This document shows positions 14,659 through 19,565 of a stretch of DNA of 49,487 nt, in pieces (the stretch's first letter is position 1; the number at the start of each line of letters is the position of its first letter). Made by a program: the position numbers and the translations under genes. The notes beneath the pieces are model-generated. The model was not told the origin of the DNA. It saw nothing but the letters and a program-made list of their open reading frames with translations, and searched no databases. Origin of the DNA: Chloroflexaceae bacterium (GTDB taxonomy: Bacteria > Chloroflexota > Chloroflexia > Chloroflexales > Chloroflexaceae); assembly GCA_025057155.1 (NCBI GenBank), contig JANWYD010000025.1:1-49487 (forward strand). Reading direction: 5' to 3'.

Positions 14659-15066
14659 GTGAACGATCCCAGCCGCACGATCCGCGTGATCGCCTTCCGA
14701 ACGCCATTTGTGACCTTCGAGACCCGTTCGTGGCATCCGCCAATGAATGTGTATGAAACCGATGAGGGTCTGGTTATTATCGCCGATCTGGCCGGGGTGA
14801 ACCCGACCGATCTGCAGGTGTATGTCAAACCAAACCTGCTTGTCGTCCAGGGGCAGCGCCAGTTGACGCCTCCGCCCGGCCTGCGCCGCATCCACCGCAT
14901 GGAGATCGGCGCGGGGCGCTTTGAGGTGGAGGTGCCGATCGCCACCTCCATCGATCCGGAACGATCGGAGGGGCATTATCGCAATGGCTTGCTGGAGATC
15001 ATTCTGCCCTACGCCAGTGATCCGCCCCAGCGCGTGATGGTCATCCAGATCGAGGGAGGGCTGTGA
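14659..15066 (+). CDS. Hsp20 / alpha-crystallin small heat shock protein
   Basis: The 135-residue protein is a holdase chaperone in the cytoplasm. Its alpha-crystallin domain spans residues about 30-125, with PPMNVYETDEGLVIIADLAGV at the start of the domain, RIHRMEIGAGRFEVEVPIA in the middle and the conserved YRNGLLEIILPY near the C terminus (the A-x-x-x-G-L-like motif). The start is GTG with AGGAG about 7 bases before it. Its stop TGA overlaps the ATG of lon by one base, so the chaperone and protease are coupled. No CIRCE element was seen upstream. Confidence 0.9.
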   Translation: MNDPSRTIRVIAFRTPFVTFETRSWHPPMNVYETDEGLVIIADLAGVNPTDLQVYVKPNLLVVQGQRQLTPPPGLRRIHRMEIGAGRFEVEVPIATSIDPERSEGHYRNGLLEIILPYASDPPQRVMVIQIEGGL

Positions 15067-17528
15067 TGAGCAACCCCGCGGCCACTCCTGATAGAGCGGC
15101 GCCCCCTGGGAGCGTGGAGATTCCCTCCAGCATGCCTATTCTGGCGCTGCCCAATGGTGTGCTCTTCCCCGGAGCCGTGCTGCCTCTGGCCGTCGGAGGC
15201 GACCCCTGGGTGCGCCTGGTGGATGACGCCGCGCTCGGTTCGCGCTTCATCGGCCTGTTCCTGCGCACCGCGCCTGGCGACACCTTCGACCCGGCCACCC
15301 TGGCCGCCACGGGGTGCGCGGCGCAGATCGTGCGCCTGCTGCGCCAGCCTGACGGCAGTGTGCAGATGCTGCTCGAGGGCCACGCCCGCATCGCCATCGA
15401 GCAGATCGTCACCACCGCGACCTATCCCGTCGCCCGGGTGCGGGTGCTCACCGAGCCGCCCCCCGACGCCGAGACCGAGACGCTGGCGCGCACAGCGCGC
15501 GTGGCCTTCGAGGAGGTGGTGCGGCTCAGCCCCTCGCTGCCCGATCAACTCGCCATCATCGCCGCCAACATTCCCAATCCCGGCACCCTTGCCGACATGA
15601 TCGCTGCGAACCTGGGGCTGCGTCCGGCAGAACAGCAGCAGGTTCTCGATACGCTGGACATTTCGGCCCGGCTGCGCCTGGTGATCGGGTTCCTGGAGCG
15701 CGAACGGCAACTGCTGGATATCGCCAATCGCACCCGCGAAGACATGGCCCGCAGCCAGCGCGAGTATGTGCTGCGCCAGCAACTCGAAACGATCAAAAAG
15801 GAACTGGGCGAGACCGATGAGCGTGGGGCCGAAATCGCCGACCTGCGCAAGCGTCTCGAGGAGGCGGGGATGCCCGAAGTAGCGCGTCGCGAGGCCGAGC
15901 GCGAACTGGCGCGCCTGGAGCGCATGCCCCCCGGCGCCGCCGAGTATACCGTCAGTCGCACCTACCTGGACTGGCTGCTCGGTCTGCCCTGGAACAAGAG
16001 CACGCGCGACAATCTGGATCTGGAGCGGGCGCAACGCATCCTCGACGAGGATCACTACGATCTGGAGCAGATCAAGGAGCGCATTATCGAGTTCCTCGCC
16101 GTGCGCCGCTTGCAGTTTGAACAGGGCGATACCGAGGCTCGCAGCCCCATCCTCTGCTTCGTTGGCCCGCCCGGCGTGGGAAAGACCAGTCTGGGGCAGA
16201 GCATCGCCCGCGCCCTGGAGCGCAAGTTCGTGCGCGTCGCCCTCGGCGGCATTCGCGACGAGGCCGATATTCGCGGCTTTCGCCGCACCTACATCGGCGC
16301 CATCCCCGGACGGATCATTCAGGGCATTAACAGCGCCGGAAGCAATAACCCCGTGCTGATGCTGGATGAGGTGGATAAGATCAGCGCCGGCATTCAGGGG
16401 GACCCGGCTGCGGCGTTGCTTGAACTGCTCGACCCGGCGCAGAATAGCACCTTTGTTGATCGCTACCTGGACGTGCCCTTCGACATGAGCCGGGTGCTCT
16501 TCATCTGCACCGCCAATCAACTCGACACCATCCCCGGCCCGCTCCTCGACCGCATGGAGGTGTTGACCCTGGCCGGCTACACCGAACAGGAAAAGCTGCA
16601 CATCGCGCGGCGCTACCTCATTCCCCGACAGGTGCAGGCTAACGGTCTGGCCCCCCGCAGTGTCGCGCCCGCGCCCGCCGCCCCTGGCGAGACGCCGCCG
16701 AGCAACCTGCCCGACCAGGATGCGCTGGAGCGCGGCCACGCCCCCGAGTTGACTGACTCGGCTCTGCGGCGCCTGGTGCGCGAGTACACTCTCGAGGCGG
16801 GCGTGCGCGACCTGGAGCGACGCATCGGGACCATCTACCGCAAAATGGCCACCCGTCGCGCCACCGGCAAGCTCCTCCCGGAACGCATTGACGGCGCCGA
16901 CCTGGAAGACCTGCTCGGCCCGCCCCGGCGTCATGGCGGCATGATCCTCGGCGACGACGAGGTCGGCGTGGTCACCGGTCTGGCCTGGACGCCGGCGGGC
17001 GGCGATGCCTTGCTGGTGGAAGCCAGCGTGATGCCCGGCAACGGCCAGTTGATCCTCACTGGCCAGCTTGGCGATGTGATGCGCGAGTCAGCCCGCGCCG
17101 CACTGACGTATGCCCGCTCGCGGGCCGGCGAACTCGGCATTGACCCTGATATGTTTCAGAAGCGCGACATTCACATCCATGTGCCTGCCGGGGCCGTGCC
17201 CAAAGACGGCCCTTCGGCGGGGATCACCATCGCCTGCGCCATGATCTCCGCCCTTACCGGACGCAAAGCCTATAAGCGCGTGGCGATGACCGGGGAGATC
17301 ACCCTGCGCGGCCGGGTGCTGCCGATTGGGGGGCTCAAAGAGAAGCTCCTCGCCGCCCAGCGCGTGGGGGTCACCCGCGTGCTCATCCCCCGCGATAATG
17401 AACCCGATCTACGCGACGTGCCCGAAGAGACCCGCGCCGCGCTGGAGATCGTTGCGGTGGAGCACATGGACCAGGTCCTGCCGCACGTGCTCTACCCCGC
17501 GGAGACGCCTGTCGCTGAAACGGTGTGA
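15066..17528 (+). CDS. lon: ATP-dependent protease Lon (LonA)
   Basis: The 820-residue protein has the full LonA architecture: N-terminal substrate-binding domain (PILALPNGVLFPGAVLPLAV from about residue 22), coiled-coil helical region, AAA+ module and serine protease domain. Walker A is GPPGVGKTS near 367 and Walker B MLDEVDK near 432. The catalytic Ser is in KDGPSAG near 716 and the Lys in GGLKEKLLAA near 759. About 30 residues rich in Pro and Ala (APAPAAPGETPPSN) are inserted in the AAA lid, before ELTDSALRRLVREYT. The start ATG overlaps the hsp20 stop, and GGGAGGG lies upstream. It degrades misfolded and regulatory proteins, consistent with its chaperone neighbour. Confidence 0.97.
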   Translation: MSNPAATPDRAAPPGSVEIPSSMPILALPNGVLFPGAVLPLAVGGDPWVRLVDDAALGSRFIGLFLRTAPGDTFDPATLAATGCAAQIVRLLRQPDGSVQMLLEGHARIAIEQIVTTATYPVARVRVLTEPPPDAETETLARTARVAFEEVVRLSPSLPDQLAIIAANIPNPGTLADMIAANLGLRPAEQQQVLDTLDISARLRLVIGFLERERQLLDIANRTREDMARSQREYVLRQQLETIKKELGETDERGAEIADLRKRLEEAGMPEVARREAERELARLERMPPGAAEYTVSRTYLDWLLGLPWNKSTRDNLDLERAQRILDEDHYDLEQIKERIIEFLAVRRLQFEQGDTEARSPILCFVGPPGVGKTSLGQSIARALERKFVRVALGGIRDEADIRGFRRTYIGAIPGRIIQGINSAGSNNPVLMLDEVDKISAGIQGDPAAALLELLDPAQNSTFVDRYLDVPFDMSRVLFICTANQLDTIPGPLLDRMEVLTLAGYTEQEKLHIARRYLIPRQVQANGLAPRSVAPAPAAPGETPPSNLPDQDALERGHAPELTDSALRRLVREYTLEAGVRDLERRIGTIYRKMATRRATGKLLPERIDGADLEDLLGPPRRHGGMILGDDEVGVVTGLAWTPAGGDALLVEASVMPGNGQLILTGQLGDVMRESARAALTYARSRAGELGIDPDMFQKRDIHIHVPAGAVPKDGPSAGITIACAMISALTGRKAYKRVAMTGEITLRGRVLPIGGLKEKLLAAQRVGVTRVLIPRDNEPDLRDVPEETRAALEIVAVEHMDQVLPHVLYPAETPVAETV

Positions 17529-17570: not shown

Positions 17571-17758
17571 GAACCGGTAACAGGGCCGTGGAAAGTCGGT
17601 AGAATGGCGTTCCTCCTGACGTATTTACTGGTGAGGAGATTGACGGGAAGACCGATGGCGATCTATATTGTTCGACCCCGCAACGGGCTAGCTGTGCGCG
17701 CAGCAAACCTGATCGGCAGGGCTTTACCGAGCCGGCACGCCAGGCGCAGATCGCCGCA

Positions 17759-18841
17759 GTGCAGGAATTGCAGCAGCAGGACCCCGTTCAGCAAGAACTG
17801 CGGGCCTGGTTCGCGGAAGAACCGCAACGGGTGCGCTTCTACGGCCCTGTAACCGGCAACCGGATTGTTGATCTGGATCCGGAGGAGGTCGAACGTCTGC
17901 GCCAGGAGATCCCTGGCGACATGGTTGTCGCCAATCAACCGATCAGTGTCATTCATCCACGCCAGACCGCGGGGCGCAAGGTCAGCCTCGAGGAAGATGA
18001 CTACTGGCATCTACGCGCGATCGGGCTCGAAGCGGCGCGTAGCAACGGGTTTCAAGGCAGCGGCCGCGACGTGCGCGTGCTGGTGCTTGATACCGGCATT
18101 GACGAGAGCCATCCCGAATTGCAGGGTAAAATCGAACAGGCATGGTTCTTCGACCCGGAGACGTTGCAGATCAGAGCGATTACGAGTTATGATAGTGATG
18201 GACATGGAACCCACGTGACCGGCCTGATCTGCGGCGATACCGTCGGGGTCGCCCCTGGAGCGCGGATCTGGAACGGTCTCATGCTGCCCCGGCGGCGAGG
18301 CACCATTGCGAGTTTCGTAACCGCTCTCGAATGGGCGGCGCAGCACGCGGAAGTCCAGATCGTCAACATCTCCGCTGGCATTCACGGGTACGTTGATGAC
18401 CTGCACGACTCGATCGCCACGCTTTTGAGCGTAGGTGTCCTGGTGGTATGCGCAACGGGGAATGAGGGTGTCAATCAGACGCGCAGCCCGGGCAATTATG
18501 TGGAAGTGCTCTCCGTGGGCGCTACGACCCGGCAGGGACGGGTTGCCAGTTTCAGCAGCAGCGGCACCCTGGTGGTCAATAATCACCAGTACAGTGTTCC
18601 CGATGTGGTGGCGCCGGGAGCGGGGGTCTTTTCGAGCGTCATCGGGGGAGGATACGAAGCTTGGGACGGCACTTCGATGGCAACGGGAATCGTTTCCGGT
18701 CTCGCCGCGCTTATCCTCGAACGCTATCCAGCCATTCGCGTCCCCGACCTGCTCGATACAATCATGAGCACCAGCCTGGAACTCGAGCAGGTCGCCGTGC
18801 GGCAGGGATACGGGCTCGTGCAGGTGGTGGCAGCATTATGA
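17759..18841 (+). CDS. Subtilisin-like serine protease (S8), 5' end possibly frameshifted
   Basis: The catalytic set is complete: Asp111 (VLVLDTGID), His149 (DGHGTHVTG), Asn235 (ATGNEG) and Ser306 (GTSMATG). Residues 1-70 resemble the second half of an I9 propeptide (VDLDPEEVERLRQEIPGDMVVANQPISVI). The annotated start is a GTG without a clear ribosome site. The same frame is open upstream to 17603 without an ATG. A different frame offers ATG 17655 with GGGAAG before it and a plausible propeptide start, MAIYIVRPRNGLAVRAANLIG. A one-base deletion near 17710-17725 would join the two, so the gene may be shifted or have a sequencing error. No signal peptide is visible. It overlaps the next gene by 4 bases (ATGA). 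Confidence 0.85.
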   Translation: MQELQQQDPVQQELRAWFAEEPQRVRFYGPVTGNRIVDLDPEEVERLRQEIPGDMVVANQPISVIHPRQTAGRKVSLEEDDYWHLRAIGLEAARSNGFQGSGRDVRVLVLDTGIDESHPELQGKIEQAWFFDPETLQIRAITSYDSDGHGTHVTGLICGDTVGVAPGARIWNGLMLPRRRGTIASFVTALEWAAQHAEVQIVNISAGIHGYVDDLHDSIATLLSVGVLVVCATGNEGVNQTRSPGNYVEVLSVGATTRQGRVASFSSSGTLVVNNHQYSVPDVVAPGAGVFSSVIGGGYEAWDGTSMATGIVSGLAALILERYPAIRVPDLLDTIMSTSLELEQVAVRQGYGLVQVVAAL

Positions 18842-19257
18842 AACTTACCGGGATCGATATGAGCAAGATTGATGTGCAGTTGAAAAAGGCGCTTCGCAAC
18901 GCCAAACCCGATGATGTTTTCCGGGTGGTGATGACCTTGCAGCCAGCGACCGCGCTTGAGTCTGGCGTGCCAGAGTTTGAGCTTGACCCAACGCAGTTTG
19001 AGACGCGCGAGGAGTACCGACGGGAGTTGATCGCCGCGCGCCAGCGAAAAATGGACGCGGCGCTTCACGACACCCGCGAGGAGCTTGAACGGCTCCTGCC
19101 GGAGGTGCACGGCGGCAAGTTGAGCCATACGGTGGTCGTCGAAGGTCCGGCCAGACAGCTTATCTCGGCCCTGCAACTCTCCGGGGTGAGCCATGCCTCG
19201 CTCGATCAGCCATTGCACCTCGTCGAGCCACGGCAGTCCTCACCTGAGAAGGCCTGA
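18838..19257 (+). CDS. Small protein coupled to the subtilase, I9 inhibitor-like
   Basis: The 139-residue product starts at an ATG inside ATGA, overlapping the subtilase stop. Two segments, VFRVVMTLQPA (about residues 28-38) and SHTVVVEGPARQLISALQLSGVSHASLDQP (about 98-127), follow the strand-helix-strand pattern of I9 propeptide inhibitors, in which the last strand enters the protease active site. A helical charged region (REEYRRELIAARQRKMDAALHD) is inserted between them. The inferred role is a stand-alone chaperone or inhibitor of the upstream protease. No exact family was recognised. Confidence 0.6.
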   Translation: MKLTGIDMSKIDVQLKKALRNAKPDDVFRVVMTLQPATALESGVPEFELDPTQFETREEYRRELIAARQRKMDAALHDTREELERLLPEVHGGKLSHTVVVEGPARQLISALQLSGVSHASLDQPLHLVEPRQSSPEKA

Positions 19258-19307
19258 GCCCGTTGGACTGTGCTGAGCATGGCCTCCAACGGGCTGCCGG
19301 CGCCAGG

Positions 19308-19565
19308 CTACTTTCGCCCCCGCTCGATCAGCGTGATCGTCCGCGGGCCGCCGGTGTTGAAGACGCATACCTCGGCCCGTAGACCGCAAGCGCCGCAACC
19401 CCCGCCGCACACTTCTCCGTCGGCAAGCTGCAAGCGCCCTTTGCGCACCCAGAAGGCAAGCATATCCTCTAACACGCCCGGATCGACCCCCAGCCGCTGG
19501 CTTAATTCATTGAGCCTCACCGGGCCGCCGGCCGTTTCTAGCGCCTGTAAGACCTCGTGTAGCAA
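19308..19565 (-). CDS. feoC: FeoC-like winged-helix protein
   Basis: The 85-residue protein has a winged helix (LNELSQRLGVDPGVLEDMLAFWVRKGRLQL, about 17-46) followed by a loop with five cysteines: CGGGCGACGLRAEVC. The family places an Fe-S or metal-sensitive site there. It usually binds FeoB and affects its stability. It lies 10 bases after the membrane half of FeoB and is the last gene of the iron operon. Confidence 0.85.
   Translation of the reverse strand: MLHEVLQALETAGGPVRLNELSQRLGVDPGVLEDMLAFWVRKGRLQLADGEVCGGGCGACGLRAEVCVFNTGGPRTITLIERGRK

What the first reader, a model, noticed from the sequence alone, without database searches (positions are those of the whole stretch)
17655..19257. 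Subtilase with split or frameshifted propeptide and a coupled inhibitor-like gene
The protease is followed, with an ATGA overlap, by a small protein whose two segments follow the I9 inhibitor pattern. The protease itself carries an I9-like N terminus whose beginning (MAIYIVRPRNG) is in another frame. No signal peptide is seen, so an intracellular protease with a dedicated inhibitor is possible. This pairing resembles a protease-antidote module, though that is speculative.
Basis: partly seen in the sequence, partly recalled or inferred. Interest (0 to 1): 0.6.

Follow-up and report, generated by a model that had tools for sequence, protein, structure and literature searches.

The report
Subtilase paired with propeptide-like partner
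An uncultured Chloroflexota-like bacterium carries a subtilisin-type protease gene that overlaps the gene of a small protein resembling a detached subtilisin propeptide; relatives keep the two together, and the small protein is probably the protease's own inhibitor, though this has not been tested.

Summary
A complete S8 subtilase domain (ORF 17759-18841) overlaps by ATGA a 139-aa ORF (18838-19257). The start MAIYIVRPRNG (17655) lies in another frame because the window is one base short there relative to two same-genus genomes, whose proteases are intact: a local mutation or assembly error, not the architecture. The pair is conserved in seven genomes, with stop/start overlap in 7 of 7; in the window's family 6 of 41 genomes have both genes and 35 neither at the thresholds used. 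[quoted passage not shown] Best reading: a cytoplasmic subtilase with a coupled, stand-alone, propeptide-like inhibitor. Binding and inhibition were not tested; a foldase role is the main rival; a toxin-antidote role has little support. Stand-alone I9-type inhibitors are known in eukaryotes and protease-inhibitor operons in bacteria, so this is a new variant of a known kind.

The parts
17759..18841 (+). subtilase (S8) ORF as readable in this window, GTG start; catalytic motifs VLDTGID, GHGTH, GNEG, GTSMAT present
   Evidence: ORF; Peptidase_S8 E 4.7e-47; motifs conserved in 7 aligned rows
17655..17758 (+). start of the protease N-terminal region (MAIYIVRPRNG...), first in another frame, then in the protease frame after a one-base difference near 17718
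   Evidence: unbroken in relatives
18838..18841 (+). ATGA stop/start overlap of the two genes
   Evidence: overlap also in the 6 other pairs
18838..19257 (+). 139-aa small protein, I9 propeptide-like, probable inhibitor
   Evidence: ORF; fold; profiles; co-occurrence
19257..19295 (+). strong G+C-rich hairpin just after the pair, no U-tract, possible transcript end between the convergent genes
   Evidence: fold, -30.3 kcal/mol for 19255-19310, z -2.86, 1 of 200 shuffles as stable; not listed as a terminator

Best explanation
A cytoplasmic subtilase made together with its own stand-alone propeptide-like inhibitor. Shown: the gene pair, its overlap, its conservation and co-occurrence, an intact catalytic domain, and an I9-like predicted fold of the small protein. 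Inferred: the overlap couples translation so that inhibitor appears whenever protease is made; the small protein packs its sheet on the protease as subtilisin propeptides do and lays its C-terminal tail (..LDQPLHLVEPR..) in the active-site cleft as a product-like inhibitor, holding the enzyme off in the cytoplasm until it is removed. The protease's own N-terminal region may be a second, diverged I9-like unit acting in cis as folding aid and first lock.
For: Pair in 7 genomes with overlapping stop/start in 7 of 7. In the family 6 of 41 genomes have both and 35 neither; the same 5 of 400 in a phylum sample. Small-protein model: VIA-align rank 1 is the Tk-SP propeptide 3afg, Z 8.4, 2.1 A over 85 residues; 16 of 50 rows are subtilase propeptides by my count. 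Profile match to 16 I9 domains 19.6, 0 of 60 column and 0 of 100 block shuffles reach it; to 7 long-form I9 domains 23.8, 0 of 200. Likeness to the protease N region 24.4, 0 of 60 and 0 of 100, ending in similar tails. Nearest PDB sequence of the catalytic domain is an intracellular subtilisin, 7xr8. Of the own genome's subtilase ORFs whose downstream end could be read (8 distinct), only this one has such a partner.
Against: No Pfam I9 match; Foldseek has no hit at E <= 0.001; the VIA tool warns that a Z near 8 can be a common arrangement and many other ferredoxin-like proteins are listed; hhalign probabilities 4-13%; the window member itself scores only E 0.14 with the long-form I9 HMM and the reverse search gives at best 0.038; pairwise likeness of small protein and protease is weak in 4 of 7 pairs. 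The seven genomes are partly close relatives. No binding or activity data; no complex was modelled; no signal-peptide predictor was run.
Confidence: 0.6

Rival explanations
1. The small protein is mainly a foldase, a propeptide supplied in trans that the catalytic domain needs to fold; inhibition is secondary or absent.
For: Subtilase propeptides act both as folding helpers and as inhibitors (PMC6993865, passages); the same fold and coupling evidence as above.
Against: The protease keeps an N-terminal region of its own that is itself weakly I9-like, so a second foldase seems less needed.
Confidence: 0.2
2. The small protein has a common ferredoxin-like fold and acts as a regulatory or substrate-handling partner without sitting in the active site.
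For: Ribosomal S6, ACT-type and HMA-type domains are also among the VIA-align rows; no Pfam I9 match.
Against: Rank 1 and 16 of 50 rows are subtilase propeptides, the I9 profile register and exact pairing with a subtilase.
Confidence: 0.13
3. A toxin-antidote module: the protease is toxic when freed and the small protein is its antidote, for stress-triggered self-digestion or competition.
For: Patchy distribution, 6 of 41 family genomes plus one genome of unstated lineage; a similar role in competition was proposed for protealysin and emfourin (PMC9505478, passages).
Against: No relative of the small protein in plasmids, phages or viral contigs; stable position in three same-genus genomes; no secretion signal by eye.
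Confidence: 0.07

Closest known systems
Stand-alone I9 propeptide-like inhibitors (Pleurotus inhibitor 1, yeast proteinase B inhibitor, Arabidopsis SPI1, Toxoplasma MIC5, Plasmodium SUB1-ProM; PMC6993865, passages)
   Same: Small separate gene product with a propeptide-like fold and little sequence likeness to I9; SUB1-ProM also lies beside subtilase genes
   Different: Those are eukaryotic and shown to inhibit or regulate; this one is bacterial, overlaps its protease gene, and is untested
Protealysin-emfourin operon of Serratia proteamaculans (PMC9505478, passages)
   Same: Intracellular bacterial protease and inhibitor genes in one operon
   Different: Emfourin is described as the inhibitor of protealysin, a metalloprotease, and as the prototype of another inhibitor family; here the protease is a serine subtilase
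Bacillus subtilis intracellular subtilisin Isp1 and its inhibitor IPI (PMC3901451, passages)
   Same: Cytoplasmic subtilisin with a reported protein inhibitor; nearest PDB sequence here is such an enzyme
   Different: IPI has an Ig-like fold and its gene is not near a subtilisin gene; Isp1 has an 18-residue propeptide, here the N region is over 100 residues

Membership tests
Peptidase family S8 (subtilase) | S8 domain with Asp, His, Ser triad and oxyanion Asn motifs | tested here: met
   PF00082 E 4.7e-47 over the full profile; DTGID, GHGTH, GNEG, GTSMAT in the aligned rows; motif roles recalled
Inhibitor_I9 (Pfam PF05922) | Score above Pfam's curated cut-off | tested here: not met
   No I9 match for any of 7 members; so it is called I9-like, not filed as an I9 member
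[quoted passage not shown]
   Model pLDDT 72.8 shows the order; best match Tk-SP propeptide Z 8.4; no Foldseek hit at E <= 0.001
Stand-alone propeptide-like inhibitor | Separate gene product, not part of a protease precursor | tested here: met
   Own ORF and start in 7 of 7 genomes
Stand-alone propeptide-like inhibitor | Inhibits a subtilase | not testable with these tools
   Needs an assay
Bacillus-type intracellular subtilisin (ISP) | Short N-terminal propeptide (18 residues in Isp1, PMC3901451) | tested here: not met
   Intact relatives have an N region of over 100 residues before the S8 domain
Toxin-antitoxin module | First protein toxic, second neutralises it | not testable with these tools
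   Needs expression tests

The most novel reading that the evidence does not exclude
A two-lock cytoplasmic protease: the subtilase carries a diverged I9-like unit in cis, and its operon supplies a second, related I9-like unit in trans with a similar C-terminal tail, a releasable, translationally coupled switch built by duplicating a propeptide.
Probability: 0.3. Interest if true: 0.6.

Novelty: new variant of a known kind. Interest (0 to 1): 0.42.

Why it matters
If right, it is a bacterial counterpart of the eukaryotic stand-alone propeptide-like inhibitors, with protease and inhibitor in one overlapping gene pair. It would suggest how such inhibitors arise (duplication of a propeptide) and give a compact system for asking how a cell keeps a cytoplasmic subtilase in check. 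The listings of my paper searches showed no bacterial stand-alone I9-type inhibitor; the library lacks most subscription papers, so this does not prove novelty.

Tried and rejected
Programmed frameshift as the cause of the broken N terminus: rejected on reading the bases near 17718 (no in-frame slippery heptamer by eye) and because the two aligned relatives are unbroken.

Weak hits dropped: L012 (Paraburkholderia) lies opposite another gene and L008 (G073) inside another gene, with no subtilase recognised beside them; L002 in the own genome has E 0.78.

Mobile-element reading: no match in plasmids, phages or viral contigs. Defence reading: PADLOC gave a general subtilase model and weak IetS matches.

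Protease model: pLDDT 38, unusable, and its fold search was not interpreted; so the N region rests on profiles alone, and in its comparison with I9 2 of 100 block shuffles reached the score.

Own-genome subtilases: a first look listed plus-strand ORFs only and was faulty for minus-strand matches; redone. Of 11 PF00082 matches, 9 had their stop inside the locus (8 distinct ORFs); only the window's has a match to the small family. Two of these (L038, L040) had under 200 bases of downstream sequence. Three of 84 plasmid records with distant subtilases were looked at; their (incomplete) annotation shows no overlapping small gene.

The phylum samples scored only some candidates per genome (10, 4), so their misses are not firm. 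A model of the complex could not be made with the single-chain tool.

Full report
What is there. The window is one contig of a 5.13-Mb genome of 189 contigs; the two nearest named records are MAGs of uncultured Chloroflexales and Chloroflexi. At 17759-18841 (+) is an ORF of 360 aa with a full S8 peptidase domain (PF00082, E 4.7e-47). It overlaps by ATGA (18838-18841) a 139-aa ORF ending at 19257. The protease frame is open back to 17603, but its first listed start is GTG 17759; the natural start, MAIYIVRPRNG at 17655, is in another frame. Aligned with two same-genus loci the window is one base short near 17718 and otherwise similar, and both relatives read through. The break is a single-base event in this genome or its assembly. 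Downstream of it selection looks purifying: dN/dS against G002 is 0.134 for the protease and 0.157 for the small protein, which favours a recent event or an error.

Conservation. The same pair occurs in G002, G004 and G001 (same genus), G017 and G019 (same family) and a MAG of unstated lineage, Bin_79R (L011, genome G452): seven genomes with the window. Stop and start overlap in 7 of 7, six as ATGA and one (G019) as TAATG. In the family the small protein is found in 6 of 41 genomes and this protease subfamily in the same 6; two further genomes (G011, G016) pass the looser protease threshold far more weakly, about 1e-36 against 1e-211. G003 (same genus) has neither, but is 84% complete. In a phylum sample both occur in the same 5 of 400 (not all candidates were scored), and among relatives of G452 the small protein is in 1 of 193, G452 itself. 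The co-occurrence is exact, but four of the six family genomes are of one genus, so these are not six independent events.

Context. Pfam confirms Hsp20, Lon, FeoC and FeoB beside the pair. Hsp20-Lon upstream and FeoC/FeoB downstream are kept in the window, G002 and G004; G001 keeps FeoC/FeoB only; none of these four genes was found in the fetched stretches of G017, G019 and L011, though G017's pair lies at a contig end. The two genes are the unit that is kept.

The small protein. It passes no Pfam cut-off (best DUF6023, E 0.013) and has no NCBIfam or PADLOC match; in the PDB by sequence there is one match, E 0.5, to AcrA. AlphaFold with a 4-row alignment gave pLDDT 72.8, pTM 0.59; after an N-terminal helix the elements run beta-(short helix)-alpha-beta-beta-alpha-beta. 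Foldseek found nothing at E <= 0.001; ranks 1-3 are a 112-residue chain of a protease entry (8c4z) and the two chains of the Tk-SP precursor 3afg, at E 0.06-0.21. VIA-align put 3afg first: Z 8.4, 2.1 A over 85 residues, model 8-128 on chain 16-112. Rank 2 is unrelated (Z 6.3, rmsd 13.5 A). Propeptides of CspB, Tk-subtilisin, subtilisin E and BPN', a fungal alkaline protease and PCSK9 follow at Z 4.9-5.8; I count 16 of 50 rows as subtilase propeptides, among other ferredoxin-like proteins. The tool warns that values near 8 can mean only a common arrangement, so this alone is suggestive.

Profiles. Sixteen of the 30 I9 loci returned for the phylum were used. hhalign of the small family against them scored 19.6 (0 of 60 column shuffles, 0 of 100 block shuffles, maximum 14.8; reversed 15.1). 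Against the 7 long-form I9 domains it scored 23.8 (0 of 200, maximum 19.7), aligning the LDP..YR..L..R segment, the long helix, the VVVEG strand, the second helix and the last strand in register. hhalign's own probabilities are only 4-13%. A long-form I9 HMM gives G001's small protein E 4.5e-5, G019's 0.0045 and the window's 0.14 in a database of 7; the small-family HMM against the 16 I9 domains gives at best 0.038. Against the protease N region the small family scored 24.4 (0 of 60, 0 of 100; maximum 19.6), over the last strand and tail, DQPLHLVEPRQ beside NQPISVIHPRQ in the window; six decoy windows of the catalytic domain scored 11.1-12.5. Single-pair alignments are weaker: of 1000 shuffles 58, 26, 9, 1, 221, 194 and 808 reached the score in the seven pairs. 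The N region against I9 scored 19.2: 0 of 60 column shuffles but 2 of 100 block shuffles reach it.

Mechanism. The pair reads best as a cytoplasmic subtilase and a propeptide-like inhibitor supplied in trans and coupled by the overlap. Shown: genes, conservation, fold likeness. Inferred: coupling, binding, tail in the cleft, inhibition, and cytoplasmic location (no leader by eye; the nearest PDB sequence is an intracellular subtilisin, E 2.3e-42). A foldase is the main rival. A toxin-antidote role has little beyond patchy distribution.

Compared with what is known. Stand-alone I9-type inhibitors are described in fungi, yeast, plants and apicomplexans (PMC6993865, passages). A bacterial protease-inhibitor operon is known for the metalloprotease protealysin (PMC9505478, passages). 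The Bacillus inhibitor IPI has another fold and is not gene-linked (PMC3901451, passages). In the phylum sample 56 of 56 listed I9 matches at E <= 1e-6 lie in open frames of at least 401 codons, so stand-alone I9 genes are not seen there at that threshold, which would miss diverged ones such as this. I rate the finding a new variant of a known kind.

Noticed in passing
window 14659-17528: Hsp20 and Lon genes overlap by four bases (GTGA at 15063-15066); the Hsp20-Lon order is kept in G002 and G004.
   Followed up: partly
window 19257-19295: A strong hairpin without a U-tract lies between the convergent small-protein and FeoC genes.
   Followed up: partly
L017 6210-8336: In G019 the gene upstream of the pair, on the same strand, reads as a protein kinase with WD40-like repeats, and a sensor-kinase-like gene lies convergent downstream (named by reading only).
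   Followed up: no
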